NCBI RefSeq assembly: GCF_002584535.1
Contig: NZ_NUOT01000074.1
Span: forward strand, 1 to 64,000
Direction of reading: 5' to 3'
DNA: 64,000 bases
Source: Bacillus cereus
Lineage (GTDB): Bacteria > Bacillota > Bacilli > Bacillales > Bacillaceae_G
The position numbers were made by a program, and so were the translations under genes. This document shows positions 1-57,030 of this stretch, one piece after another. Every line of letters starts with the position of its first letter. Position 1 is the stretch's first letter. The notes below the pieces were generated by a model. The model did not search any database. It was given only the letters and a program-made list of their open reading frames with translations, and had not been told where the DNA came from.

Positions 1-916
1 AACTTGTTTTCCATACCACTCTGCCTTATACACAAACATCGCTCTGAATTGTGACCAAGATACTTCTTGAATCGCTTTCGCGAGCTTGTGATTCTGTAAC
101 ATATTGGATACTTGCAAATCTTCTATCCCAATCACATCGTGGTTTTTGATGATCATCGTAGACAGTTTTTGTAAGTAATCAGTTTTTGCATTTGTGATTC
201 GCTCATGTATACAAGCCACTTTGATTCGCTGTTTATGCCAGTTCGCTCCACCTTTTGTACGACGAGACAAAATACGCTGGGCATGAGCGAGCTTCTTCTC
301 TAATTTCCGAAACCATTTCGGATTGCCAAATACTTCTCCCGTTGAAAGAATCGCAACGTTTTTCACGCCAACATCCATACCAACAGTGGAACCTGTCTTT
401 GGCAATTCTTGCACTTCTATTTCGACAAGAACTTGGATTCCTTCTGACAGTAGCGTACAAAATACGTCCTTCTACCTCACGACTTTTGGCAAACGTGACA
501 AGGCCAAGTTTCGGTAACTTTATTTTATTCCCTACAATCGCGATCTTCCCATTTGTGTGCTTCGTTGTATAGGATTGGACTTTATTGTTTTTCGACTTAA
601 ACCGAGGTGCTTTGTTTTGTTTGTTGAAGAATCGTGAATACGAGTCAGCGAGGTTGTAAAGAGAAGATGGAAGAGCCGTGCTGTCCACTTCTTTGAGCCA
701 TACAAATTCTTTTTTGAGGGCAGGTAGTTGCAAAGAACAAGTGCCATAGGTGAATCCTTTCCCTGCTTCTTTATATCTATCATTCCATTTTGCTAAAAAA
801 TAATTGAATACAAAACGAGAACAACCCATTGTTTTCTCAATACGTATTTTTTGTTCTGCATTAGGGTAGATCCGGAACTTATACGCTTTATGGACGAGCA
901 CCACTTTCCACCTCAC
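1..916 (-). pseudogene. tnpB: IS200/IS605-family TnpB (OrfB), frameshifted and cut by window edge
   Basis: RNA-guided nuclease of the TnpB family (accessory protein of IS200/IS605 elements). The first part (916 to about 435) encodes the N-terminal domain with the motifs KAYKFRIYPN and CSRFVFNYFL. After ATVRRNPS the frame is lost: the matching continuation, [14 protein letters not shown], lies in another frame with no stop down to base 1. It carries the RuvC-like GMDVGVKN (first catalytic Asp) and [10 protein letters not shown] (catalytic Glu). Compared with family members about 20 nt are missing at the break, so this is a deletion rather than programmed slippage. A GTG start near 901-904 fits better than 916. 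The 3' end, and any omega-RNA there, lie outside the window. No TnpA is visible. Confidence 0.88.
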
Positions 917-32397: not shown

Positions 32398-34248
32398 TTA
32401 TGTTACTACCGTTTTTAGCCATTTCTCAAAAATTTGCACAAGACCATGCTTTCCAGCTAATTTTTCTTCTCCTTGCTTTGTTTTATATGGATATAATTGC
32501 AGAAAGATTCCGCAACCTGCTTCTATTTTCTTCCCATGCATATGACTGCCTGGGTATACACAAATCACTTCATGGATCGCCCTTCGGTGAAAAATATGTT
32601 TTCCATCCTGTTCTTCTACATATTTAATAGACCAATATTTATACATCTGTTCTGTTGCTTTTGTATTGCCTACGGGCTGAAAAATATTAAACATGGGGCT
32701 ATATTTCACTTCAATAATAATAGAAGACTGGTACTCATAGCGCTCTCCTTGTTTCACATAACAATCTAAACGAATGTCTGGTTTTTTCGTGTCCTCTCCA
32801 TTATAAAAATGGCTACCTTTACTAAGTGCAATGAGTGGATGTGTTTCAATAAGGTCATTAAACGCTACATGTATTTGGATATTTTCACGATTTAAAACAA
32901 TTGTCGTACCGTCTTGTAAACCATCTAAGTAAAAATAAGTTTGAATTTGTTCGAGAAGTGGAATATCATCTTTAAATTTTAATTGTTGCAATATAGAAAT
33001 GATGATGAAAAATGCATAATACTCATACACTAAAAATGTTGGTTTATAAACAAATAATAATGCTGGAGATTGTTGATTATAACGTGGTAGAAATTCTAAA
33101 TGATATAATAATTGCCGATGTGTAACAGGTAAAGCATGCATAGTTATATTTGTTTTTTCAGAAATCCCTCTCCAAAATGAAGAATTCAACAAATTTTGAA
33201 AGTACAGTATAGCTTGGTGTACAATATGATTTAAAATTTTATACTCTTGTATTTTCACAGATGCTTTCCGCAAGTCTGCCTCTTTTAACAAATGAATATT
33301 TCGATATTTTTGCTTCTCCCTGTCCGTTACAGATCCATTTCTTTCAATAGTATGCATAATTATTTTCACAGATTGGAATTCCTCTTTTTTGGTCTGTATT
33401 GTTCCTTCTAGTATTTCAATTGTTTTGTGTAAGAAAGCCTGAGCTTCAAGCAAATATTGATAAAATTGTTTCGTTGTAAATTTTAGAAAGGCATTCTCTA
33501 AACTATTTGTTTGTTCGATAAATCTACGATTATAATACTTAGCAGTAAGCTTTTTCTCCCTCATTATTACACTTTTCATCGTTGCTTTTCGTTCTCGTAC
33601 CTCCCAATCATATCTATCTATATACTTCGTGTTCTCTTCAACTTTTTTATATAGCTGTTTTATTTTTTTCATTTTTTGTGGTAGCATGCGAAGTAACATT
33701 AAATAAGAAGAATCTTCAATATCAATTAGTGTTGAAAATGTCTTTTTATAATAACCACGGTCTAACATAATTTCACTTAAAATTGATTTTACATAATTTT
33801 GAATCATTTCAAATTGATCATCCAAAAAATTTTTGGGGACAATTTGAAACGCTCCATAATATACATCTTCTTCCACTTGCACCTCGAAATGATACAAGCC
33901 GCAGCGCCATGGATAAAAAAAGTCTGTTTTTCCATGTTCATATAATAATACTTTTTGTTTTTTTTCATGCAATTCATATTGCCATTCTTTCTTACCCTTT
34001 TGCCCTTCATACACTTTATTCCATACAAAAGTGACACGGACTGGTTTTTGATAATGTAACATCAAACGTAATGCTTTTAATTCTTGTACTTTATAAACAC
34101 AATGTGTCATTGTTGTCGTGTATTTACAAAGGCGATTCAGAAATACAAAGTCTCCCTTTCCCTCTGTTCCAATAATTAATTTTAATACAAACGGGAGCTT
34201 ATCATTTGTGTCTACAATTTCCGTCTCGTGCTGCTCCTCATTTTGCAT
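32398..34248 (-). CDS. McrC-like protein: DUF2357 plus PD-(D/E)XK nuclease (system 1)
   Basis: 616 residues. The N-terminal half fits the DUF2357 stalk of McrC-type proteins; the middle (about 185-350) is helical and charged. The C-terminus has the nuclease motif KPDIRLDCY...IIIEVKYSP (D and E-x-K). With the McrB-like ATPase upstream it forms a type IV (modified-DNA) restriction-like pair. ATG 34248 overlaps the ATPase stop by 11 nt and has GGAG at 10 nt; the frame to 34269 is not needed. 32000-32397 contains no gene I can see. Confidence 0.82.
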   Translation of the reverse strand: MQNEEQHETEIVDTNDKLPFVLKLIIGTEGKGDFVFLNRLCKYTTTMTHCVYKVQELKALRLMLHYQKPVRVTFVWNKVYEGQKGKKEWQYELHEKKQKVLLYEHGKTDFFYPWRCGLYHFEVQVEEDVYYGAFQIVPKNFLDDQFEMIQNYVKSILSEIMLDRGYYKKTFSTLIDIEDSSYLMLLRMLPQKMKKIKQLYKKVEENTKYIDRYDWEVRERKATMKSVIMREKKLTAKYYNRRFIEQTNSLENAFLKFTTKQFYQYLLEAQAFLHKTIEILEGTIQTKKEEFQSVKIIMHTIERNGSVTDREKQKYRNIHLLKEADLRKASVKIQEYKILNHIVHQAILYFQNLLNSSFWRGISEKTNITMHALPVTHRQLLYHLEFLPRYNQQSPALLFVYKPTFLVYEYYAFFIIISILQQLKFKDDIPLLEQIQTYFYLDGLQDGTTIVLNRENIQIHVAFNDLIETHPLIALSKGSHFYNGEDTKKPDIRLDCYVKQGERYEYQSSIIIEVKYSPMFNIFQPVGNTKATEQMYKYWSIKYVEEQDGKHIFHRRAIHEVICVYPGSHMHGKKIEAGCGIFLQLYPYKTKQGEEKLAGKHGLVQIFEKWLKTVVT

Positions 34249-36049
34249 ACCCATACAACTCCAATTCACGCCGTTTTTGCCTTATATAAGCTAGAGAATG
34301 TTCGAATGCGGAGACACAATTTGCAAGTGGAGATTGTAATAACGCTACTAACGATCGTCCTTTTTTCTCATCATCACGAAGAAGTGAACCAATTGTCACC
34401 TCCGTACCTCGTAATTTTGTTAAAATACGTTGTTTCACTTGTAAATCAAAACCTTCTTCTCGGCTAATCATATATGATTGAGTATCTTTTTGGGGAATGT
34501 TTTGCAAATAAGTTGCAATCGCAGCAGCACATCGAAAAGAAACGCCTTTCGATGCGTCATGTGATGATATTAAATCATGTAATTTATCTAATAACTCTAA
34601 TTCTTCTTCCGAAAACACATCCATCATCTCTTTATTTCGTAACCAATTTAGACGAAATTCTCCGGTTGTCACTTGTAAGGGCGGAATTTGTGTCCCTTTA
34701 TTTTGCTGCAGATTTATTTCACAAAATGGAATTTTTTGAAGCGTAATGAGATTTGCCCGATCTAATAAGCGATCCGATAACTCTTTCGTTGTTTCATCAA
34801 AATTCACAGTCCCGATAAAAATAATATTTTCACCAATTTCAATTTTGGATGGAACTTCATTCTCTATCCCAGTCCGTTCCTCATATAAAGAAAGAATACG
34901 ATTTTTCTTTTCTAATTGAAGAATAGATAAAAATGGTGTAAACCAATGCTCAATATGTGACATATTCATTTCATCAAATACAATCATATAAAGTTGATTC
35001 GGATTCTCATTCGCTTTTAATAATGTTCGAATTAATTTCGTTTCACTCTCGATATATGTTCCATTTGGATGAAGATAGCCTAGTATATCGTGTGGTTCTT
35101 GATAAGATGGAGAAATCGGAATCCATAACAATTCTTCCCCATATGTTAATCCTAATGCTTCTGCATATGCCTGCACCAAACGTGATTTTCCGATTCCTGG
35201 GATTCCAGCAAGAATTGTTAATAGATTTGTTTTTACACTAATATGAAAATTAAAAATATCCGTTGCATCTAAATACAAGTCTTTATTATTGATGACATCC
35301 TGTACATATTGTATAAATGTAGATTCACGCTCATTCCATTCTGTTTCTTCTTTTTGCACTTTTATGTCCACTACTTCCACCTTTTTTCCCTCTTCTAGAA
35401 TTTTCTTTAGAAGCTGATCATACATATTTTCTCGAACAAAATACAAATGATCATCCGCTTTCACTTCTATATATTTGGTCCAATCATCCATTTCGATATA
35501 TTTACATTCTTTTTTTTGTTCGCAATACGCGATTGAACTAATGGATGATTTTAAAGATAAATTCCCATATAATCTTCCTTCACACCATAACAACTGTGGT
35601 ACTTCAAAGTCGTGTGGAAATTTAGGAATAAGAAAAGATAAAAATCCATTCCCTAGTTTTCGCTCTAACGACTCTCTCTTTTTATACCCGGCTAATCTTG
35701 GCGATGGGATGATTTTATATGCATTCGCAATTTCCCGCTGCTCTGTACATATTAATTCAACGTACAAATGCCCTCTTTCATAATAAAGTCGAAACAATAC
35801 TATTTGTCTTTCTAACCCTTTTTTCTTTAAATCCGCAAATATTCTCTCATTTTTTTTGTTGGCATATAGCCCTTCAAACAAATACGTTTCATTTTCAAAT
35901 TGTGATTTCAAAACAGATGGGATTTGTGAAAGACATTGTACAGAAAAAGTATCTTTATTCTCCTCCTGACTTTCAACAAATTTCCCAAGAAACCTCATAT
36001 GATACATCCGTTTTATAAAACTTGGGTGGAGAGCTTTATGTAGCTTCAC
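34238..36049 (-). CDS. McrB-like AAA+ ATPase (system 1)
   Basis: 603 residues. An N-terminal region (1-240) of unknown fold, probably target recognition, then a McrB-type AAA+ domain: Walker A GIPGIGKS (282-289), Walker B MIVFDEMNMSHIEHW, sensor GTVNFDETT and arginine-finger region LSDRLLDRANLI. It ends in RELELYGYAK, a tail echoed in the second McrB-like protein (RLYGHTV). GTG start at 36049 (8 nt after AAGG). The pair probably restricts foreign DNA; the modification recognised is unknown. Confidence 0.84.
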   Translation of the reverse strand: MKLHKALHPSFIKRMYHMRFLGKFVESQEENKDTFSVQCLSQIPSVLKSQFENETYLFEGLYANKKNERIFADLKKKGLERQIVLFRLYYERGHLYVELICTEQREIANAYKIIPSPRLAGYKKRESLERKLGNGFLSFLIPKFPHDFEVPQLLWCEGRLYGNLSLKSSISSIAYCEQKKECKYIEMDDWTKYIEVKADDHLYFVRENMYDQLLKKILEEGKKVEVVDIKVQKEETEWNERESTFIQYVQDVINNKDLYLDATDIFNFHISVKTNLLTILAGIPGIGKSRLVQAYAEALGLTYGEELLWIPISPSYQEPHDILGYLHPNGTYIESETKLIRTLLKANENPNQLYMIVFDEMNMSHIEHWFTPFLSILQLEKKNRILSLYEERTGIENEVPSKIEIGENIIFIGTVNFDETTKELSDRLLDRANLITLQKIPFCEINLQQNKGTQIPPLQVTTGEFRLNWLRNKEMMDVFSEEELELLDKLHDLISSHDASKGVSFRCAAAIATYLQNIPQKDTQSYMISREEGFDLQVKQRILTKLRGTEVTIGSLLRDDEKKGRSLVALLQSPLANCVSAFEHSLAYIRQKRRELELYGYAK

Positions 36050-36112
36050 TATACTCACCTTCTTTTTTTCATACTATTTTTATTGTATGAACTGCAAAAG
36101 AAAACTAGAAAC

Positions 36113-46362: not shown

Positions 46363-46669
46363 CTAAATACTACAAACAAAAAAAGAAGCTAAATACATCA
46401 GCTTCAGTTTAGGTAATGAGACAGTAAGAACACCGTCTTTAAATGCTGCCGCAATTCTTTCTTGATTCACAAATACCTCTCTTTCAAAATCGACTTGAAT
46501 GTTTTCTTTTTGAAATCCTGGTAAATCTGCTTGCACAATATATTGATCAGAATCCTTTGGAACATCCACTTTAAAACTATTCATGTTCATTGGTTTAGAG
46601 AAAATATCAAGGTCCAAACTGAGCAACACCATTTTGACGATTTACTAGCTTTTGAAATATATTACGCAT
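46363..46669 (-). pseudogene. Hsp20 small heat-shock protein, broken
   Basis: The start MRNIFQKLVNRQNGVAQFGP (46669, with AAGGAAT) runs into a stop; shifted by frame, the Hsp20 sequence follows: FSKPMNMNSFKVDV, YIVQADLPGFQKENIQVDF. The core beta-strands are then missing: DFEREV jumps to ERIAAAFKDGVLTVSLPKL. So one frameshift and an internal deletion of about 50 codons are visible. A terminator hairpin follows at 46379-46406. Confidence 0.85.
46379..46406 (-). terminator. terminator of the hsp20 remnant
   Basis: GAAGCT / AGCTTC stem with a T7 run on the minus strand. Confidence 0.7.
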
Positions 46670-47453: not shown

Positions 47454-47580
47454 TCACTCCACTGTAGCATGTAAACAAGACTTAAAGTGCCCAATTGCAA
47501 ACTCATGTCCTTGCTCATTAAAAGAGGCCACTGCTTTTTCGTGTACAACGATATGAAACCCTTTATTATAGGCATCAGAA
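47454..47580 (-). pseudogene. nicotinamidase/isochorismatase-like gene, 3' fragment
   Basis: Minus-strand frame ...DAYNKGFHIVVHEKAVASFN, then EQGHEFAIGHFKSC and LHATVE-stop. This is the C-terminal strand-helix part of PncA/YueJ-type hydrolases. The gene's other part, at 56371-56784 on the same strand, stops exactly where this piece should begin (VCTDIC), so the two look like one gene split by about 8.8 kb. The left edge of the insert coincides with the direct repeat at 47581. Confidence 0.82.
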
Positions 47581-47695
47581 CACAAATGTATGAATACATG
47601 GTATATCTTAAAAACGCCTTCGAGCTTGTCGGAACAAGATTTTTCACAACTTATAATGCAAATTTATTTCAAAAGGACAAAATGGTATATAAATT
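47581..47695 (+). repeat. 115-bp direct repeat, left copy
   Basis: CACAAATGTATGAATACATG...AAATGGTATATAAAT. About 85-90% identical to 53743-53857. One frame (MYEYMVYLKNAFELVGTRFF, then TTYNANLFQKDKMVY) looks like a protein C-terminus, so the copies may be two decayed ends of one gene family. It directly abuts the nicotinamidase fragment. Confidence 0.85.
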
Positions 47696-47773
47696 TGCTT
47701 AGCATATGTTTTTTTTAATATGTTGATGGGACTTCTTAAAGGCTGAATTAATATAATTTTTACAAACAAAAAT

Positions 47774-47800
47774 GGACCTTTAAAAGAGGTCCTTTATTTC
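47774..47800. terminator. short hairpin terminator
   Basis: GGACCT / AGGTCC stem, then TTTATTTC; orphan, in the remnant-rich gap. Confidence 0.55.
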
Positions 47801-47921
47801 TTACAAAAAATCAACACTATTATTTAAACATAGTCTAATCAAAAGAAAAACCAAAGACCACTGTATTTTCAGTCTTTAGTTTTTCTCATGTAATTAAAGC
47901 ATCTGCGACAAAAACAAAATA

Positions 47922-48059
47922 TTATGGTTTAATGATAACTTTCCCACCTACTCTTGTCATCGCTATTGCTTCAGTCACTTTGGTGCCGTTAGTTGATGTA
48001 TCTCTATAAAAGGCATCCAACGCTTCATCAAACCACTCTGCGTCTTTTAATTTACTAGC
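47922..48059 (-). pseudogene. 3' coding remnant, unknown family
   Basis: ASKLKDAEWFDEALDAFYRD, then TSTNGTKVTEAIAMTRVGG and KVIIKP-stop; clearly protein-like and on the minus strand, with no start. It ends at the thermonuclease remnant. Family not recognised. Confidence 0.5.
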
Positions 48060-48061
48060 TT

Positions 48062-48482
48062 ATGTGTAATGTAGATGGTCAGATGATAAATAAGATGTTA
48101 CTAAAAAAGGGATTAGCAAGGGTTGCTTATGTATATGCACCAAACACAACTCACATCGATGAGTTTTATGCAATTCAAAAAGAAGCACAGAAAAAAGGAA
48201 TTGGGATATGGAGTATTGAAGACTATGCTGCTAATGATTTCAATACAAGTTCTTCAACAAACTCTAATCATCCTAAAACAAATTCTACCCCCCTCTCAAA
48301 ACAATTCAAACGATAATAAAGAAAGCAATGTAGTTTGCAAGGGAAAAATCAAAGGCAATGCAAACAGCAAAATTTATCATGTTCCTGACGGGGATTTTTA
48401 TAATAAAACAACGAATAACATTGTCTGGTTTTGCACAGAAAAAGAAGCGCAAGAAAATGGATATGTAAAATCAAAACGTTAA
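48062..48482 (+). pseudogene. thermonuclease (SNase-like) 3' fragment with frameshift
   Basis: Begins NVDGQMINKMLLKKGLARV and IQKEAQKKGIGIWSIEDYA, the C-terminal part of staphylococcal-nuclease-like enzymes. The catalytic N-terminal half is absent. A frame change at a C6 tract (48288-48293) leads to the second half, VVCKGKIKGNANSKIYHVP...WFCTEKEAQENGYVKSKR, typical of the secreted Bacillus form. Confidence 0.82.
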
Positions 48483-48509
48483 AAAAGCACTTAAAAAAGT
48501 GCTTTTTTT
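48481..48509 (+). terminator. terminator of the thermonuclease remnant
   Basis: AAAAAAGCACTT / AAGTGCTTTTTTT; also faces the minus-strand McrC-like gene end. Confidence 0.88.
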
Positions 48510-48535
48510 CATTAACTATATCATGCATCTTGATA

Positions 48536-50362
48536 TTACACTCGTTGGTGAAACAGCTCATGATAAACATCTACTACTTTTTTGATTGCTTCTGCAATTC
48601 CAAGATGGAAACCATTCTTTTCTTCTAATGGTGTTAATTCCATTAAACGGACTTGATTACTTTCCATAGGGTCTTTAGGCTGTATATTACCCTCATTCTT
48701 CGGATAAACTGCCCAAACTTCGTGCACCGTTCTAAATACACGCCAGTTACCTGGGGATTCATTTTTATATAAGAAAGGAGAATCCATATTGTCACGATAA
48801 GAAATTAACTGACGCATAACATCATTCTTTTTTCTCTTTGCATTAGTCCATATGGCATGTACAGGTCTGTATTTAAAATCAACCATAATTGTTCCAATAT
48901 ATTCATTATCTTCGTATATATCCATTCGAGCATCCGGTCGATTATGCGTTCCATTCGCATAAATCGGTTTATCCAGAACTGTTTTTTCCTTATCGAATGG
49001 TAATCTTTCATCATAAACCAAACGCAATCGAATATTCTCTTTCTTAAATTCAATTACTGTTCCTGGTTCTAAAAAAGGAACTGTAATTGTTTTTGAATTA
49101 GGATGGGTATCAAAAATCCAACCCTTTACCACTTCAAAGCCAACAGTTTCTTTTTGTAATCCGTCTATCAATTGTAAAAACCCCCAAATTTCATACAATA
49201 AATCTGTTCGTTTCCAATAGTAGTCGTAATTGGTATCCAGTGTAATGGATAACTCTTCATTTTTTAACAAGCGATACAGTTGATATAACTGTCTGTATCT
49301 TAAGTCCAAATGCAAGACATGAGGAATGCTCAACACTTGTGTCTCTTCTACTTCTTCTATCCAATCTTCTTTTAATACAAGCAAGCATTCACTTCTCACA
49401 CGTCGAACAAATCGTTCATATTCTATCAATTCATCTAATACTTTAGAGTTCAATCGAACTTTAATGTGTTCATCGTGATGAAAACGTCGTTCATCTTTAA
49501 TCTCTCGTTGTATTTTTTCTTTATGACTATGGAGATATTCCAATAATTCGTTCATTTCTCGCGAGATAAAACGCACGATATTTTTAATCCATTGATTCTC
49601 TAATAAGTTATGATTTCGAGTATGTTTAGGTGTGTAAACGTAATCTCTACTTTCTAGATGCCGAGAACGATAGCGGATACTAGTAGCATCAACAATTCCA
49701 GCTTTTCCTTCTGGCACTAAATTATATTCCTTACGAATCCGCATACGAGGTTCGGTTTGAATCATTTTTAAAGAATTAATCCATTTCAAGTAATCTCTTT
49801 TAACGATATATAACTTTCGAAGAATATGAATGGGAATAGGAAGGGAGCTATTAATTCCAAGACTTGCATTTTTCCTTACCAAGTCTTGTGCTAGTCCATT
49901 CAACGTTTCTTCCACTTCATCACGCATTGAAACCCATTGTTCTTCTGTGATTTGTTTTGGTTGTACCTTGAGCCAAGAATAGTAAGATACATTTTTTACA
50001 ACTACTTTGATACGATAATGTCCAGGAATCAGTGGATAATATCCATCGCGATTGTCTGAATCCTTACCATTATTATATAGATATACAGGACTTATTTCAG
50101 AAGATATATATGCAATATCATCTTCCCCAAATTCTAAATCCCGTTCTGGGAGGGTATCCAACCCATCCATATAAAGACGGGCTGTTTCATCCTCACAAAT
50201 AAATTCTAATAATAAATGTTTGTTTTCTACGACTTCGGGTACGTTTTCATCTTCCATTCGATACAAAAGCGTTTCATCTTGTACGAAGTTAGTAACAGGT
50301 ATTTCTTTTTCGCTTGGGTGATTAGGATTTTGACGAAAAATAACTTTAAACGGTATGACCAT
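48536..50362 (-). CDS. McrC-like protein: DUF2357 plus PD-(D/E)XK nuclease (system 2)
   Basis: 608 residues: a beta-rich DUF2357 start, a long helical stalk (about 150-370) and a nuclease end with RPDARMDIYEDNEYIGTIMV followed by DFKYRP (D and D-x-K, where system 1 has E-x-K). Its ATG overlaps the ATPase stop by 17 nt. Third gene of a coiled-coil protein - ATPase - nuclease operon. Probably cuts foreign DNA under control of the ATPase. Confidence 0.83.
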   Translation of the reverse strand: MVIPFKVIFRQNPNHPSEKEIPVTNFVQDETLLYRMEDENVPEVVENKHLLLEFICEDETARLYMDGLDTLPERDLEFGEDDIAYISSEISPVYLYNNGKDSDNRDGYYPLIPGHYRIKVVVKNVSYYSWLKVQPKQITEEQWVSMRDEVEETLNGLAQDLVRKNASLGINSSLPIPIHILRKLYIVKRDYLKWINSLKMIQTEPRMRIRKEYNLVPEGKAGIVDATSIRYRSRHLESRDYVYTPKHTRNHNLLENQWIKNIVRFISREMNELLEYLHSHKEKIQREIKDERRFHHDEHIKVRLNSKVLDELIEYERFVRRVRSECLLVLKEDWIEEVEETQVLSIPHVLHLDLRYRQLYQLYRLLKNEELSITLDTNYDYYWKRTDLLYEIWGFLQLIDGLQKETVGFEVVKGWIFDTHPNSKTITVPFLEPGTVIEFKKENIRLRLVYDERLPFDKEKTVLDKPIYANGTHNRPDARMDIYEDNEYIGTIMVDFKYRPVHAIWTNAKRKKNDVMRQLISYRDNMDSPFLYKNESPGNWRVFRTVHEVWAVYPKNEGNIQPKDPMESNQVRLMELTPLEEKNGFHLGIAEAIKKVVDVYHELFHQRV

Positions 50363-52298
50363 ATAAACGTAACTCCTTCGCTTTTTCCGCTATCAATTTT
50401 CTTGTTTGTTTAAATTCATATGAATCTGGCATATTAGATAATAATTCTAATAGTTTACTATTTTCTACTTGCTTTGTATCAGGATTATATTGACCAAGTA
50501 ATTCAGTAAATTGTTCATCCGACCCGCGGACTTTTGTTAGAACACGTTGTACTAACTGAATATCAAAAGCTTCTTCTCTACTAAGAGGAGCGTTTAGCGG
50601 AATGTTATTTAGGAAATTGCTGATTTGACGAATAATACGCCATCCGATTCCCAAGTTTCGACTGCAATTTTGCAATTCAATGTGCAAATCCCAGAGGAAC
50701 TTAGATTCATTTTCATGTAATGAAATTTCACGTTCTTTTCTTTTGAATGTTTCGTATTCATCAAATGTAAATGGCTCTGACTTCGGTATAATTGGTTCTT
50801 GTTTACGCTGTTCTTCCATTTGTAGCACATTGGAGTATGGCTGCATGTTTAAAGTAATTACATTTGCTCGGTCTAATACCTTATCAGAGAATTGGAATGT
50901 AGATTCATCAAGATTTACAGTTCCTACAAAAATCACGTTACTTCCTATACGTAAAGTAGGTGGAAATACATTTTGGTTGTAGATTCTTGCACTAAACTCT
51001 TCATTATACAAACGCAAGATTCGTTTATTTTCTTCCAACTCAAGTACCGATAAGAATTGTGAGAAATAATGTTCAACGCGTGCAAGATTCATTTCGTCAA
51101 AGCAAACGATATGCAAGTCTTCACCATATTCATTAGCACGAGCTAAGATATTCATCACGCCGGAATCTCCTGGGCGATATACGTTATGTAATGTATCTAA
51201 ATACCCAATTACATCTGCATCATCTTGCCAAAACGGACGAACCGGTACAAATAGCATTTGGTCCTTGTTTAGTTTCACAGCATTTGCATAACATTGGACA
51301 AGCTTTGATTTTCCAGTACCACTCATACCAGCTAAAATTACAAGACTTCCCGTTTTCATTGCAGTATGGAAATTATATAAATCTTTAGTGTCGTAATAGA
51401 GTCCTAAACGTTTGCATTCATTTTGAAATGCTTCCATAAACTCATGTTCTCTGTATCCAATAGAGTGTTCTTCTGGTGTAACAGTCTCTACAGGTCCTTC
51501 ATCTATTAATTGCTCTTTTGGAGCGTCTGGTGCTTCTAATCCACCAATAGGTTCTCCATGTTCTTCAAGCAAACCTTGCAATTCATCGTATTGGTTTGAT
51601 TCCATAAAAAGAACCTGTTCATGCACATAACTATTCATGACATATTCCGTTTGTAAATTGATGGAATTTACTTGATTTGATGATGTATAGAATCGAAAAC
51701 CACCATGAGCGTAATCATGTTTTTCAAATGAACCGTATAGTGTATATTCTTGCTTGTCTGGTTGATGTTTCCATAAAATCATAGTTGGAGTATCGTCATC
51801 ATCTTTAGGAATTTGTTTATTGTCTCCTATATATTTCTTACCCTGTAATTGTTGTTCAAATACCTCTTTTGTACGCTCAGTTGTTTCTTCTGAAAAAATT
51901 GGAATCGGGTCCAAAAATATACCAGGGGCAAAAGAATCAGACTTCTTAACAATACTTACATCCCTTGCAACATGATACTCCATTCCTCCACTTGGTTTTT
52001 TTAAATCTACTTTAAAAAAGAGTATGTAGCGATTCAAAAAATCGCGAAGCGCTTGCTTTCTGTCGAAGTCGCTTTTAGTAATATCATCATAAAAACCCCA
52101 ATTATTTAACTCCTCCGCATAACAACATACATCTCTTATTTGTCGAGGGAAACTTTCAGGCGGCGTAGAAACGATTCGTATATAAAATTGTAAATTATCG
52201 TTTCGATTGATAATAACAGAACTTCTTCCTGTTGAAACCTCTCCGTCATTTGCTAAAATCCCTGCAATATCAAAATCCCATTTTTTTGCTCCGTACAT
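50346..52298 (-). CDS. McrB-like AAA+ ATPase (system 2)
   Basis: 650 residues: N-terminal region (1-280) with an acidic segment (PKDDDDTP), unlike that of system 1, so the target probably differs. AAA+ domain with Walker A GMSGTGKS (324-331), Walker B HIVCFDEMNLARVEHYF, sensor FVGTVNLDEST and FSDKVLDRANVITL. It is clearly related to the system-1 ATPase through this domain and the C-terminal RLYG tail. It starts one nucleotide after the coiled-coil gene's stop. Confidence 0.86.
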   Translation of the reverse strand: MYGAKKWDFDIAGILANDGEVSTGRSSVIINRNDNLQFYIRIVSTPPESFPRQIRDVCCYAEELNNWGFYDDITKSDFDRKQALRDFLNRYILFFKVDLKKPSGGMEYHVARDVSIVKKSDSFAPGIFLDPIPIFSEETTERTKEVFEQQLQGKKYIGDNKQIPKDDDDTPTMILWKHQPDKQEYTLYGSFEKHDYAHGGFRFYTSSNQVNSINLQTEYVMNSYVHEQVLFMESNQYDELQGLLEEHGEPIGGLEAPDAPKEQLIDEGPVETVTPEEHSIGYREHEFMEAFQNECKRLGLYYDTKDLYNFHTAMKTGSLVILAGMSGTGKSKLVQCYANAVKLNKDQMLFVPVRPFWQDDADVIGYLDTLHNVYRPGDSGVMNILARANEYGEDLHIVCFDEMNLARVEHYFSQFLSVLELEENKRILRLYNEEFSARIYNQNVFPPTLRIGSNVIFVGTVNLDESTFQFSDKVLDRANVITLNMQPYSNVLQMEEQRKQEPIIPKSEPFTFDEYETFKRKEREISLHENESKFLWDLHIELQNCSRNLGIGWRIIRQISNFLNNIPLNAPLSREEAFDIQLVQRVLTKVRGSDEQFTELLGQYNPDTKQVENSKLLELLSNMPDSYEFKQTRKLIAEKAKELRLYGHTV

Positions 52299-52299
52299 G

Positions 52300-53505
52300 C
52301 TACAAAACCCTCTCTCTTATTCTGTTATTTTGGTTTAATAACTCTTTTACTTGATTGAAATTTTTACAAATGTTGATTTTAGTTTTGTCGATTTGTGAAT
52401 ACGAATCGTTTGCATTCAATAGAAATTGGTCTTTATTATCGAGTTCGTATGATAAAACCCAATAAGATTCACAGTCGAGTGGGAATTGATAATCATGGAC
52501 AGCACCTGCCTCTACAAATTTAAATTCGATTTTTTCATTATCAAATTGGTTTGTATATACGGGTTTTCCAATTACAAGAATTCGAGTTTTATTTGTTTGA
52601 TTCAAAGTTGCTTTAATTTCAGTCGTTGTTTTGTTATCAGAACCTTCCTTTGTTAGTTCTTGCAATTGTTTCTCATGCAATTGTTTCTCGTTCATTTGTT
52701 TTGCATGTAAATGATTTAATTGACCTTGCAAATCTTTTATTGTTTCTTCGTACTCTGCTTTTTCTTTATTCCATTTTTCTTGTTTCCCCTTATACTCGTT
52801 AGTTATTGTTTCATTTTCTTTCGATAACTCGTTATACAATCGGTTTTTTTCATTTAGTTTTTCAGTGGTTTTCTTATTGCCTTCTTTTATATCATCTATT
52901 TTTTTCTTATGATTTTCATCACGTTTTTCCAACTCCTTCGTCAGGTTTTCTACCTTTTGTTCGAGTTGTTGTATCTTCTTTTGGTCTTTTTTAGAGGTCG
53001 TCGTTACCTCTTTTGGTTTTTCGTTAGGAATTGGTTTTTGTTTTGTCATCGGTTTTTTATCGTTCGATTCAGTGTTTTCTGATTTAAGTGTAATGGATTC
53101 ATTCGGAAGATTTAATAATTCGCTCTGTTCATCTTTTAAAAGTGCATACAATTGGACTGCCTTTTTTTCTTGGTCTTCAGAAAATAGTTTTGCAAATACC
53201 GTAGCAGCATTAATGTGCTCTGCAATATTTACTAGTTCGTTTACCTCTTTATCTACCAACGATAATCCATCTAGTAGGCTTGGCGCAATTCCTTTGGACC
53301 AGGACATCAATTTTGGTAAATACTTTGTGTCAAGCAAGTTTGAAATAAGCATATTTCTATTTGTTTTATTAGCTTTATTAACGATAGACTGAATTTTATT
53401 TTTTCGGACGCCATTAACTGGAATTTCTGTTTTTTCGTATATTTGAGCCAAAACTTCATTACTAAATCTAGGTAGCAACCATCGCCACACATCTTTACTA
53501 GACAT
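52300..53505 (-). CDS. coiled-coil protein of the McrBC-like cassette
   Basis: 401 residues: an N-terminal helical domain (1-130; WRWLLPRFSNEVLAQIYEKT), a Lys/Pro linker (140-170), a long coiled coil (about 170-295; KKIQQLEQKVENLTKELEKR) and a C-terminal alpha/beta domain (305-401; TRILVIGKPVYTNQF). No catalytic motif is recognised. First gene of the operon, immediately before the ATPase. Coiled-coil partners occur in some McrBC-derived defence systems (the CoCoNuT group); kinship is not shown here. Confidence 0.8.
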   Translation of the reverse strand: MSSKDVWRWLLPRFSNEVLAQIYEKTEIPVNGVRKNKIQSIVNKANKTNRNMLISNLLDTKYLPKLMSWSKGIAPSLLDGLSLVDKEVNELVNIAEHINAATVFAKLFSEDQEKKAVQLYALLKDEQSELLNLPNESITLKSENTESNDKKPMTKQKPIPNEKPKEVTTTSKKDQKKIQQLEQKVENLTKELEKRDENHKKKIDDIKEGNKKTTEKLNEKNRLYNELSKENETITNEYKGKQEKWNKEKAEYEETIKDLQGQLNHLHAKQMNEKQLHEKQLQELTKEGSDNKTTTEIKATLNQTNKTRILVIGKPVYTNQFDNEKIEFKFVEAGAVHDYQFPLDCESYWVLSYELDNKDQFLLNANDSYSQIDKTKINICKNFNQVKELLNQNNRIRERVL

Positions 53506-53742
53506 ACAGTCCCTTCTTTCTAAAAGTGATATTGTTTTTTTGTGTGTCTGAATCCGTTTACATAATTATCACTCCCCTCACAATTGATATTTCTAACCGT
53601 TTATTCCTATTATGTTAAGAGTCTATAAGAATATAAAGATAGAAAATATACATAACAAAATTTTTCTTGTTCAATGAGTAATATTCTCATTCGTTATTTC
53701 CGATAAAGTCCTTAATAAAAGATAAGAAAATATTTCCTGAAT

Positions 53743-53857
53743 CACAAATGTATGATTACATGATATATCTAAAAAAACACCTTCGAGCCTGTGTGAACAA
53801 TTCTTTTTGCAACTTATAATACAAATTTATTCCAAAAGGACGAAATGGTATATAAAT
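53743..53857 (+). repeat. 115-bp direct repeat, right copy
   Basis: Same orientation and length as 47581-47695, with scattered mismatches and small indels. Together the copies bracket the thermonuclease remnant and the three-gene McrBC-like operon. Beyond it a coding-like tail continues (STAFQYNATMN-stop, to about 53890). The rest of 53506-54053 holds the operon promoter region and, near 53963, GGCTCTGTTAAATTTTAA, which resembles an IS end. Confidence 0.85.
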
Positions 53858-54053
53858 CTACCGCCTTTCAATACAATGCGACCATGAATTAGTTTTACAT
53901 TATCCCCCTCCTACGGCGTGCAGCTCTTTTTTAATCAACTAACGGTCTTTATTCAAATTGGCTCTGTTAAATTTTAATGTTGATAATTGAGTAAATTAGA
54001 GGGAAACCCTTATATTTGGATTTCCTGTTTTTATACTTTCGACTTTTTCGCTG

Positions 54054-54302
54054 TTAAGAAACATTTTTTAGCCAAGTAATAATTCGAAGTACCTGAAATG
54101 GTTCAAACCAAGTAATTAAAAACATCACAACGAAGAAAGAAATAAGTGATATGAATTTTAATGTTCCTTTTTCCCGTTTAGCAACTGCTATAAAACTTAG
54201 TGCAATTCCAACTAAAAAAGAAATAAAACTAAAAAGGACAATCGGTTCAGAATAGCCATCTATTTTCCAATTTAATCCGAATAATAATAGCCCTATAAAC
54301 AT
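54054..54302 (-). CDS. small multipass membrane protein
   Basis: About 82 residues with three membrane helices (MFIGLLLFGLNW; IVLFSFISFLVGIALSFIAV; FISLISFFVVMFLITWF). The best ribosome-binding site, GGAGGTG (54341-54347), lies before two in-frame ATT codons (54335-54338), not before the ATG at 54302; the original start codon may be mutated or ATT may be used. Function unknown. Confidence 0.55.
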   Translation of the reverse strand: MFIGLLLFGLNWKIDGYSEPIVLFSFISFLVGIALSFIAVAKREKGTLKFISLISFFVVMFLITWFEPFQVLRIITWLKNVS

Positions 54303-54412
54303 CAAGACCACCGAAAATACACTAAATTTTCTAATAATTACACCTCCAAATATGATTTTACCATTTTAAGGAGTAAACGATAATTATTTTTTGTGCATAA
54401 GAATTAACAATT

Positions 54413-55020
54413 ACACGATAAACTTAAGCTCTCATATGTATCAATCATTTCATACACAAATGAAGATAGGAGAAACTCTTTTATATTATGTTTAGTGCTT
54501 TCGTTACTGCAACTATCAACAAATAAAAACCAAGCAAGTTATCGAGATATTTTGTAGCCACGCCTTTAAATCGGTCTATTCATTGTTTCATACGAGAATG
54601 GAGACCATTTACATTTTGAATGTGATACAAGCCTTTAATAACGTACTTACCATCATTTGACTTAATTCTGTAATGTTCATTCCCCTTTTCTTTAGCGTAG
54701 GTTTTGTACACTCTCCAAGTATCTGTAACAAGTACATTATTAGGGGTCAGTTTAGAGCCAATCATAGTATCCACCTTATTTTTGACAACACGCCCCAAAC
54801 AAGCAACTTTTGAGACAGTTGCTTGTTTGGGGCTAATGCCTATATGTTTGAATTTTCCACCTCGCTTACGGAGTTTGCGTTCCGTAATGCCACGTTGCCC
54901 TTTTTGAGAGTATAGGAAATAAGTCTCATCAACTTCAACGATACCATCAAATTGCTCAAACTCCATTTGTTTTAATGCACTTAACAATTTGTGCCTCCAA
55001 TATAAAAGTGTTTCACTTTA
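54413..55020 (-). pseudogene. ISXO2/IS1595-type transposase, broken
   Basis: The central part is open (54987-54580): GIVEVDETYFLYSQKG, KLRKRGGKFKHIGISPKQ, VLVTDTWRVYK and the final GLHSRMKQ. An in-frame TGA (for Trp) follows, then IDRFKGVATKYLDN, then a frameshift into AWFLFVDSCSNESTKHNI and a degraded tail. Upstream the frame extends to SETLLYWRHKLLSAL and ends at a stop; the N-terminal domain is absent. Inactive relic inside the insert region. Confidence 0.85.
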
Positions 55021-55053
55021 TAAAACCGAGTTCTAATGATTCTTTCATAGCTT

Positions 55054-55959
55054 TTAAAGCAGCAAATCCGTTGAGTTAACAATATGAATTCCATATGTTA
55101 GTTTTAATTGCTCAAATGCTTTTTCCGTTTCCTCTTCATAACTAGGAATAGGACTCATACAATCATTTAATAGATAAATATTGGAGGTTACAGAACGGTC
55201 ATCTGTATAATGTTCAACAATTTGCTTTACTGATTCTAAGACACAGTGAGATTTGGCTTCTCCTGCAATAATGATTTTTTTGTAAGATTTTAATGAATTT
55301 AAAAATTCATAATTCCCTTCATCGCCCACTGCATATTCAGGCTTAATCATCCCATACATTTCACTTAATGGATTTTTTCCCTTTACGATTTTTTCTATTT
55401 TGGTGTTTCGAGCAATAGAGTGGAAATGAATCATATTAGAAAATTGACCTTCTAATGCCGCCCCATTAGTTCCTTCAATGCAGTGATATGTCCAAATACA
55501 CAGTTGCTTCTTACCTATTTTTTCGAGATTACGCAGATAGTCTAAGCTTTCTTTTTGCTTTTCCACCGCTATCCAAATCCCCTCCTCTACATCATCTAAT
55601 TTAATAATAGTAAATGGGGCTGGGTGATTCCCTTCTCTATCCACCCACCAACAAGGGTGAAAAATTTGATGTAAGTCATGGGTATCTAATGACACTGCGA
55701 TAGTGGTAATTTTATTTAAGTTCTTATAGATAAAATTTGTGATATTTCGAATATCTCGATGAGAATTTGGAACCCCTAATTCTCCGTTCTCCATAAAATC
55801 ATTTTGAAAGTCAATCCCAATAACCATTACTCGTTCCTTATCTTCGCTCGCAGGAACTAATTCCTCTGCCTTTGCCAAAACAAGTAAATCATTTAGTTTC
55901 ATTCTGTTTGTTCTACCAATTTCATCAATCCTAACAATGTCGTCAAATCTTGTCTTCAA
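55054..55959 (-). CDS. isochorismatase/nicotinamidase-like cysteine hydrolase
   Basis: 301 residues: isochorismatase fold with the Asp in VIGIDFQNDF, a metal-site-like SLDTHDLHQIFHPCWW, and the nucleophile Cys in IAGEAKSHCVLES. Longer than PncA (about 180-200). It lies inside the region that splits the pncA-like gene, so it could replace that activity; or it could act on another amide. Preceded by 410 bp with no gene except the hairpin at 56279-56314. Confidence 0.82.
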   Translation of the reverse strand: MKTRFDDIVRIDEIGRTNRMKLNDLLVLAKAEELVPASEDKERVMVIGIDFQNDFMENGELGVPNSHRDIRNITNFIYKNLNKITTIAVSLDTHDLHQIFHPCWWVDREGNHPAPFTIIKLDDVEEGIWIAVEKQKESLDYLRNLEKIGKKQLCIWTYHCIEGTNGAALEGQFSNMIHFHSIARNTKIEKIVKGKNPLSEMYGMIKPEYAVGDEGNYEFLNSLKSYKKIIIAGEAKSHCVLESVKQIVEHYTDDRSVTSNIYLLNDCMSPIPSYEEETEKAFEQLKLTYGIHIVNSTDLLL

Positions 55960-56278
55960 CTTAATTCATCTCCTATCTCAATGTTTTTTAATTTACAATT
56001 TAGGATACTACTGTGCAAAAAGGAAACAGTTTCAATACGAAAACATACGTTCTGTTTAACTACGAAAAAAATAGCTCATTCTAGAGTCTGTTTTTATGTA
56101 TATAAGTATCAAGGTTTAGTCACGGCCCATTAAACTACAACAACATTTACTGTAACAACAATATACAAAACACTGATTAGTTGTTCTAAAGAGTCTTTTC
56201 AGATTCTGTTATTAGCTAAATAATTTCTTTACTTTCACATACATATTTTAACATTAGTGATTAATAAAAGCTAACCAT

Positions 56279-56314
56279 ATCCTTCAATTGCAAACAGATA
56301 GTTAATTGAAGGAT
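56279..56314. terminator. inverted repeat / terminator-like hairpin
   Basis: ATCCTTCAATT / AATTGAAGGAT, 11 bp perfect with a 14-nt loop, 57 nt from the right breakpoint of the split gene. Its T tract is poor. Confidence 0.5.
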
Positions 56315-56370
56315 TATTATGAGATATTACTGTAATAATAAGCTTTGAAGGGAAAGTGGATTCCTAATAT

Positions 56371-56784
56371 TCATAAACAAATATCCGTACATACGCCAAC
56401 AAGGTGCACTTCCTGTATTCCTCTTTCCCTTAATTTCATTTCTAAGTCCGTTCCAACAAAAGCACTATAACGTGTTTTGTCCATATAGTATACATTCTCA
56501 TTATCTTGATATTTTTCATACAGATCTTGCAACTCTCCGTATAAATCTCTTCCTTTTGTACCCGCTATATTATGTGGTGGAAATAATTGTGTCTCTGGAT
56601 GATAGGAATCATTCTTTTCATGTTTATCAATAGTAAACACAACATAATCTCCGTTTTCAATATACTCCTTCGTAATCGCTACAAGATGCTCTTCAATATC
56701 TTGCCCTGCCTTTCCACACGTTAAAGCACCATTTTCTGCTACAAAATCATATGTATAATCAATATTTATAAGCGCCCGCTTCAT
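56371..56784 (-). pseudogene. pncA: nicotinamidase (PncA/YueJ-like), 5' part, truncated
   Basis: 137 residues, the first three quarters of a nicotinamidase: KRALINIDYTYDFVAENGAL (catalytic Asp), VFTIDKHEKND (metal-site D-x-H), MDKTRYSAF and HLVGVCTDIC (nucleophile Cys). It stops right after Cys-Leu, where relatives continue with a further 45 or so residues. Those residues lie at 47454-47580. ATG 56784 has AGGAG at 8 nt. Probably inactive. Confidence 0.85.
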
Positions 56785-57030
56785 CACTTATTCTCCTCCC
56801 TACTTGTTTCACGCTAAACAATAGAAAACGAGTTTTAACGACTCAATATATTTTATTCGACATTTTCAAACAAATCCCTACGAAGCATTTATATATAAGA
56901 TACAGGTATTTGTCATTTTTATTTGATTTGGATATATCGATTGGAATACGTCGGTAATATTGCACTTTTTATTATCATCCAGTAAGATCCTTTCGCTTGA
57001 CAATCCCATTTTACGAAAAACAGATAAAAC

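What the first reader, a model, noticed from the sequence alone, without database searches (positions are those of the whole stretch)
47454..56784. Nicotinamidase gene split by an ~8.8-kb insert carrying a defence-like cassette
The 5' part (56371-56784) ends at VCTDIC plus one residue; the 3' part (47454-47580) begins with the next expected segment (DAYNKGFHIVVHEKA). Both are on the minus strand in the right order. Both junctions have the hexamer ACAAAT on the plus strand. Between them lie a McrBC-like operon, an IS relic, remnants and a second isochorismatase-fold hydrolase. This looks like gene disruption by accretion of an island.
Basis: partly seen in the sequence, partly recalled or inferred. 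Interest (0 to 1): 0.8.

Follow-up and report, generated by a model that had tools for sequence, protein, structure and literature searches.

The report
Defence island splitting a nicotinamidase gene
A bacterial NAD-recycling gene is cut in two by an 8.8-kb inserted DNA island that carries an apparently intact restriction-type defence system and, notably, a second enzyme of a different lineage that may do the broken gene's job.

Summary
A YueJ-type nicotinamidase gene lies in two minus-strand pieces (56377-56787 and 47454-47576) on either side of an 8,789-bp insert (47588-56376). In 103 of 103 fetched loci where both pieces match well, they lie 15-18 nt apart in one gene; gene order on one side is kept in two relatives. 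The insert is bordered by a 6-bp direct repeat, ACAAAT, and imperfect terminal inverted repeats. A 115-bp repeat at the left end recurs inside, again after ACAAAT, so the island looks like two tandem units. Unit A carries a three-gene NxD-type McrBC system, apparently intact. Unit B carries an IS1595 relic and a 301-aa hydrolase, best read as a second nicotinamidase: 6 of 9 relatives examined sit next to nicotinate phosphoribosyltransferase, and genomes with it almost never have the YueJ type (1 of 25 against 259 of 372; kinship not corrected). So the island probably broke one nicotinamidase and brought another. That substitution is inferred, not shown. No genome of the window's own species was available, so the empty site and the mobilising enzyme remain untested.

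The parts
56377..56787 (-). 5' piece of the YueJ-type nicotinamidase gene (about 137 codons, up to the conserved cysteine; the open frame runs on to 56371 with one codon and a stop from the insert)
47454..47576 (-). 3' piece of the same gene (40 codons and its own stop)
47588..56376 (.). inserted island, 8,789 bp between the two ACAAAT border copies
47582..47587 (+). border direct repeat ACAAAT, left
   Evidence: with the five bases beside it, it matches exactly the commonest form in the gene of relatives (11 of 89 distinct)
56377..56382 (+). border direct repeat ACAAAT, right (last six bases of the 5' piece)
47582..47694 (+). left-end repeat, copy 1
   Evidence: 86% identical over about 115 nt to copy 2
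53744..53857 (+). left-end repeat, copy 2, also starting with ACAAAT; proposed boundary of unit B
52300..53505 (-). coiled-coil protein, first gene of the defence operon (401 aa)
   Evidence: an upstream gene of similar size in 8 of 8 closest McrB loci; 19-24% identity; significant by tblastn (E up to 1e-3) in only 3 of the 8; coiled coil judged by eye and weak Pfam hits
50346..52298 (-). McrB-like GTPase, NxD type (650 aa)
   Evidence: AAA_5; PADLOC PDC-M26A 3.3e-44; Walker A and the NxD motif kept
48536..50362 (-). McrC-like protein: DUF2357 plus PD-(D/E)xK nuclease (608 aa)
   Evidence: PDDEXK_7 1.8e-6, DUF2357 4.3e-6; D481 and D495-x-K497 conserved in 9 of 9 aligned
55054..55959 (-). 301-aa isochorismatase-fold hydrolase, proposed second nicotinamidase (TTG start, AGGAG upstream)
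54580..54987 (-). IS1595-family transposase relic (incomplete)
   Evidence: NF033547 1.3e-28, profile positions 48-187 of 215; PF12762 1.2e-6
48062..48479 (+). relic of a staphylococcal-nuclease-type gene, 3' part only; continuation in a second frame judged by eye
   Evidence: PF00565 4.2e-12 on 48062-48313, profile positions 60-106 of 107

Best explanation
The chromosome's YueJ-type nicotinamidase gene was interrupted, at the codons around its catalytic cysteine, by a mobile island that duplicated or shares a 6-bp core (ACAAAT). The island is built of two units that both begin with the same 115-bp end. Unit A brings a three-gene type IV restriction system (coiled-coil protein, NxD McrB GTPase, McrC nuclease) that most likely cuts modified or foreign nucleic acid. 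Unit B brings a nicotinamidase of another lineage, which most likely takes over the nicotinamide-to-nicotinate step lost with the split gene, so that the insertion costs the host little. Shown: the split, the repeats at the borders, the intact frames, the families. Inferred: mobility, tandem build-up, enzyme activity, substitution and defence.
For: Pieces adjacent in one gene in 103 of 103 loci with both matches. Neighbour order nicotinamidase-kinase-regulator-flavin-reductase-like gene-McrBC in L001 and nicotinamidase-flavin-reductase-like gene-McrB2-McrC2 in G004, as on the left side of the island in the window. ACAAAT at both borders and inverted-repeat ends, P about 0.018 and 3e-4. Second end copy after the same hexamer. 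Three-gene order in 8 of 8 closest McrB loci. Hydrolase relatives: NAPRTase directly downstream in 6 of 9 loci, NAD synthase in 3 of those 6 and within 3 kb in a viral contig, a full-length NrtR-like Nudix gene upstream in 4 of 9 and remnants of it in 2 more. Near-exclusion of the two nicotinamidase types: 1 of 25 against 259 of 372, Fisher P 3e-11. The window hydrolase keeps 77 of 80 columns invariant in 9 relatives, among them the D, DxH...H, K and C positions.
Against: No integrase or complete transposase was found in the island. The right end of unit A does not resemble that of unit B (by eye). Copy 2 of the repeat also starts with CACAAAT, so the hexamer could be part of the repeat and not a target duplication; the bases beside the left hexamer have the exact form of the gene in only 11 of 89 relatives. 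The exclusion test is not corrected for kinship. The hydrolase scores below Pfam's cut-off for PF00857 (19.9 against 27), and in the window no pncB, nadE, nadD or full NrtR-like gene lies near it. 2 of 9 contexts (L164, L165) show no NAD gene nearby. The winged-helix domain of the NrtR-like gene of L161 scores below its cut-off (23.6 against 27).
Confidence: 0.58

Rival explanations
1. Plain accretion: a defence island with relics landed in the gene by chance, and the second hydrolase is passenger cargo with another substrate; loss of nicotinamide recycling is simply tolerated.
For: Relics of an IS and a nuclease gene show a mixed island; the hydrolase is only weakly similar to known nicotinamidases; 113 of 397 sampled genomes have neither type at the limits used.
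Against: NAD-salvage context of 6 of 9 relatives and near-exclusion with the YueJ type; expected catalytic positions kept.
Confidence: 0.33
2. Site-specific recombinase mechanism: ACAAAT is the core of an attachment site in the conserved nicotinamidase sequence; two elements integrated one after the other at the same site, giving three core copies.
For: Three ACAAAT copies at 47582, 53744 and 56377, the first two followed by the same 115-bp end.
Against: No recombinase gene found in the island; ACAAAT occurs 12 times on the + strand in the island span, borders included, so the third copy is weak evidence by itself.
Confidence: 0.35
3. Transposition with a 6-bp target duplication by a lost transposase; the second repeat copy is the end of an older nested element.
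For: Terminal inverted repeats and flanking 6-bp direct repeat; an IS relic is present.
Against: The only transposase relic is IS1595-like, a family recalled to make 8-bp duplications.
Confidence: 0.3
4. Artefact: the pieces are separate genes or paralogs, or a misassembly.
For: No reads are available, and the right-hand neighbours of the split gene were not found beside the intact gene in L001 or G004.
Against: Pieces adjacent in one gene in 103 of 103 loci; the left side keeps its gene order.
Confidence: 0.03

Closest known systems
McrBC type IV restriction, NxD branch (PMC11090510; passages and section 7 seen)
   Same: AAA GTPase with the NxD motif followed by E, McrC with DUF2357 and a PD-(D/E)xK nuclease, genes abutting or overlapping
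   Different: A separate coiled-coil gene precedes McrB; this exact three-gene form is not described in the passages seen
CoCoNuT systems (same paper)
   Same: NxD GTPase, coiled-coil protein, McrC homolog in one operon
   Different: Coiled coil is not fused to McrB and the McrC nuclease residues are kept
Isochorismatase-fold nicotinamidases (YueJ/PncA type; PDB 3o90, 6a8l)
   Same: The split gene belongs here
   Different: The island's 301-aa enzyme is a distant branch, longer, with relatives in NAPRTase/NAD-synthase neighbourhoods
Tandem islands at one attachment site (SCC-type arrays; recalled)
   Same: Successive units sharing an end and a core
   Different: No recombinase found; insertion is inside a metabolic gene

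Membership tests
YueJ-type nicotinamidase (split gene) | Isochorismatase domain and match to solved nicotinamidases | tested here: met
   5' piece: PF00857 1.7e-19; 6a8l 1.6e-60, 3o90 1.5e-46
YueJ-type nicotinamidase (split gene) | One uninterrupted reading frame | tested here: not met
   Two pieces 8.8 kb apart
McrBC, NxD branch | GTPase with NxD in place of NxxD | tested here: met
   N462-x-D464-E465 invariant in the 10 members of alignment A4, two of them window proteins
McrBC, NxD branch | McrC with DUF2357 and PD-(D/E)xK | tested here: met
   PF09823 and PF04411 above cut-off; D481, D495-x-K497 in 9 of 9 aligned
McrBC, NxD branch | Restricts phage or modified nucleic acid | not testable with these tools
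   needs an experiment
CoCoNuT | Long coiled coil fused to McrB | tested here: not met
   coiled-coil protein is a separate gene in the window and in 8 of 8 loci
CoCoNuT | McrC nuclease often missing or inactive, then with another nuclease gene beside it (often, not always, by the paper) | tested here: not met
   nuclease residues kept
Nicotinamidase (301-aa hydrolase) | Catalytic D, K, C and metal-binding D/H positions | tested here: met
   D50, D92, H94, H101, K193, C239 invariant in 10 of 10; which residue does what is by recalled comparison with PncA
Nicotinamidase (301-aa hydrolase) | NAD-salvage gene context | tested here: met
   NAPRTase adjacent in 6 of 9 relatives; not so in the window itself
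Nicotinamidase (301-aa hydrolase) | Passes a curated family cut-off | tested here: not met
   PF00857 19.9 against 27; NF008623 28.9 against 174
Nicotinamidase (301-aa hydrolase) | Hydrolyses nicotinamide | not testable with these tools
   needs an assay; structure prediction was also off
Mobile island with target duplication | Direct repeat at both borders and inverted ends | tested here: inconclusive
   ACAAAT and 12 of 17, but the hexamer may belong to the repeat
Mobile island with target duplication | Empty site in a close relative | not testable with these tools
   no close genome held

The most novel reading that the evidence does not exclude
A mobile island that targets the conserved active-site codons of nicotinamidase genes and carries its own non-orthologous nicotinamidase as a substitute, together with a restriction system: gene replacement built into a defence island, so that the host depends on the island for NAD recycling.
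Probability: 0.25. Interest if true: 0.8.

Novelty: new variant of a known kind. Interest (0 to 1): 0.5.

Why it matters
If right, it catches non-orthologous gene displacement in the act, with the old gene still readable in two pieces. It would show one way in which a defence island could become costly to lose. It also points to a recurrent three-gene McrBC form (8 of 8 closest McrB loci) that seems worth testing, and to a nicotinamidase-like branch that nearly excludes the YueJ type in 397 sampled genomes of the order.

Tried and rejected
Plasmid and phage records: no match to the locus DNA in plasmids, none to the end repeat in plasmids (copy 1) or phages (copy 2); only distant McrB and hydrolase relatives. 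Viral contigs: no exact copy of the repeat pattern, no close McrB or YueJ-type relative, one hydrolase relative. The end repeat in 19 family genomes: one weak 40-nt hit in 1 of 19; weak hits in fetched loci appear to lie in unrelated reading frames. Rfam: 0 families at gathering score. tRNA genes: 0 in the window. Separate paralogs: rejected. Rank agreement of the two pieces across relatives was absent (Spearman 0.04, P 0.70); with a 40-residue piece at this distance I read it as uninformative, but it does not support a shared history. GC content does not set the island apart (33.3% and 32.3% against 34.4% for the window). Promoter and terminator scans gave numbers near the shuffles (49 against 42.5; 6 against 4.0). 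Literature: six searches (listings only, apart from PMC11090510) gave nothing on this locus; that is not proof of absence.
Full report
What was checked. The 5' piece alone matches the isochorismatase domain and solved nicotinamidases. I searched the two pieces separately against all loci fetched by then: 118 loci have a hit to the 5' piece, 105 to the 3' piece, and in all 103 loci where both match well they lie in the same gene with 15 nt (101 loci) or 18 nt (2 loci) between them. Some of these loci are repeat fetches of one place. Mean identity is 70% for the 5' piece and 64% for the 3' piece. The rank order of relatives does not agree between the pieces (Spearman 0.04), which I take as noise from a 40-residue piece. 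Neither piece is decayed much: 3 of 59 and 1 of 15 strongly conserved columns differ, against 95 distinct relatives picked by an uninterrupted motif. The break is therefore probably recent. In the GTDB family of Bacillus sp. 165, 16 of 19 held genomes have the gene, in open frames of 183-205 aa without a stop.

Location. Gene names of the neighbours are recalled from their sequences. In Bacillus sp. 165 (L001) the intact gene is followed by relatives of the window's histidine kinase (best segment 99 aa, 63%), response regulator (68%) and flavin-reductase-like protein (68%), with McrB- and McrC-like hits beyond. In genome G004 (L103, L166) it is followed by the flavin-reductase-like gene (76%) and then by a McrB/McrC pair 52% and 55% identical to the window's other McrBC operon at 32-36 kb. 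The window has this order on the same strand to the left of the island, with other genes in between (a Nudix gene on the other strand, and several kilobases between the flavin-reductase-like gene and McrB2). The right-hand neighbours of the split gene were found in neither L001 nor G004, so synteny is shown on one side only. No genome of the window is held: the lipoprotein next to the gene matches in 4 of 397 genomes of the order, at best 44%.

Borders. On the plus strand ACAAAT stands at 47582-47587 and 56377-56382. At the right border it is the last part of the gene. At the left border ACAAAT and the five bases beside it have, read on the gene's strand, the exact form found at that place in 11 of 89 distinct relatives, the commonest single form, followed by a short gap before the 3' piece resumes. 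This makes a 6-bp direct repeat the likeliest reading, though not a sure one. Inside the hexamers the insert ends are imperfect inverted repeats, 12 of 17 with an exact 8-mer; 17-mers drawn at random from the insert do as well in 0.03% of pairs. ACAAAT itself is common, 58 times on the plus strand of the window, and P for one within 20 positions is 0.018. Both tests were framed after seeing the sequence.

Two units. The first 115 nt of the insert (with its hexamer) recur at 53744-53857 with 86% identity, in the same orientation and directly after a C, as CACAAAT. This gives three ACAAAT copies, at the left border, at the internal repeat and at the right border. I read it as two units in tandem: A, about 47588-53743, and B, 53750-56376. 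Against this, the right end of A is not like that of B, and the shared hexamer may belong to the repeat.

Unit A. Three overlapping or abutting minus-strand genes: a 401-aa coiled-coil protein, a 650-aa McrB-like GTPase and a 608-aa McrC-like protein with DUF2357 and a PD-(D/E)xK nuclease. PADLOC gives PDC-M26A for the GTPase (3.3e-44) and for all 10 members of its alignment, two of which are window proteins. The GTPase has the shortened NxD motif, the mark of a branch described in PMC11090510 (passages and section 7). By that paper's features it is not a CoCoNuT: the coiled coil is not fused to McrB, and the nuclease residues are kept in 9 of 9 aligned. In the 8 loci with the best whole-protein McrB scores, a gene for a 324-408-aa protein sits directly upstream of McrB in 8 of 8 (L156 and L157 are near copies of each other, as are L154 and L155). 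Its sequence is poorly kept: 19-24% identity in the alignment, and a significant tblastn match to the window protein in 3 of 8; the others rest on position, size and the alignment. Relatives of the GTPase occur in 147 of 397 genomes of the order, most of them distant. Also in unit A is the 3' remnant of a staphylococcal-nuclease-type gene.

Unit B. It holds an incomplete IS1595-type transposase, an 85-aa frame without a confident family, and the 301-aa hydrolase. The hydrolase scores below the cut-offs of PF00857 and of the nicotinamidase model PRK11609, but its own family is clear: 25 of 397 genomes of the order carry it, the best at 70% identity. Of nine relatives whose surroundings I examined (L158-L165, L109), six have nicotinate phosphoribosyltransferase directly downstream (70-72% identical to the L158 one, of which two, L158 and L162, were scanned with Pfam), three of these six also NAD synthase, and four a full-length NrtR-like Nudix gene upstream, with remnants of it in two more; one is in a 167-kb viral contig with a Nudix gene and NAD synthase nearby; two (L164, L165) have no NAD gene nearby. 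The winged-helix domain of the NrtR-like gene is below cut-off in L161 and not reported in L158. The positions expected of a nicotinamidase are invariant in 10 of 10. The window's copy has a TTG start with AGGAG upstream and differs at 3 of 80 columns invariant in the other nine. No pncB, nadE or nadD lies in the window.

Exclusion of the two enzyme types. With a limit of 1e-20, 260 of 397 genomes have the YueJ-type gene. Of the 25 with the 301-aa gene only one (G069) has it, against 259 of 372 of the others; Fisher P is 3e-11. A first count on 64 of these genomes gave 1 of 25 against 24 of 39 at the same limit (Fisher P 3e-6). 113 genomes have neither type at these limits. The direction fits two enzymes for one step.

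Mechanism. Most likely a mobile island entered the gene at the codons of the conserved cysteine region, by transposition or site-specific recombination with ACAAAT as core, in two steps or as a tandem pair. The host lost YueJ-type nicotinamidase and gained an alternative one with a restriction system. I found no complete mobility gene in the island, so it was moved in trans or has since lost its own. Substitution, mobility and defence are inferred; the split, the repeats at the borders and the intact frames are shown.

What is known. Type IV McrBC islands and gene disruption by islands are known kinds. I found no report of this locus in six searches (listings only apart from PMC11090510). The unusual part is the possibly isofunctional cargo; its weight depends on an enzyme assay and on strains with and without the island.

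Noticed in passing
window 32398-36058: A second NxD-type McrB/McrC pair outside the island; relatives in G004 are 52-55% identical and lie in the same neighbourhood, so this one looks like an old resident.
   Followed up: partly
window 47926-48060 (-): Apparent C-terminal remnant of another gene beside the left end, next to the nuclease relic (by eye); not identified.
   Followed up: no
window 56250-56382: Stable predicted single-strand fold at the right end of the island (z -2.8, 2 of 200 shuffles as good), mostly one hairpin at about 56276-56320.
   Followed up: no
window 233-916: Frame resembling a cut-short TnpB-type protein (recognised from recall only).
   Followed up: no
window 46363-46632: Short frame resembling a cut Hsp20-type protein between the Nudix gene and the kinase (recall only).
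   Followed up: no
L109:7208-12247: Viral contig of 167 kb with a Nudix gene, the 301-aa hydrolase and NAD synthase close together: a likely phage NAD-salvage set.
   Followed up: partly
L150-L157: A 324-408-aa gene upstream of NxD McrB and McrC in 8 of 8 loci, kept in order but fast-evolving in sequence.
   Followed up: partly
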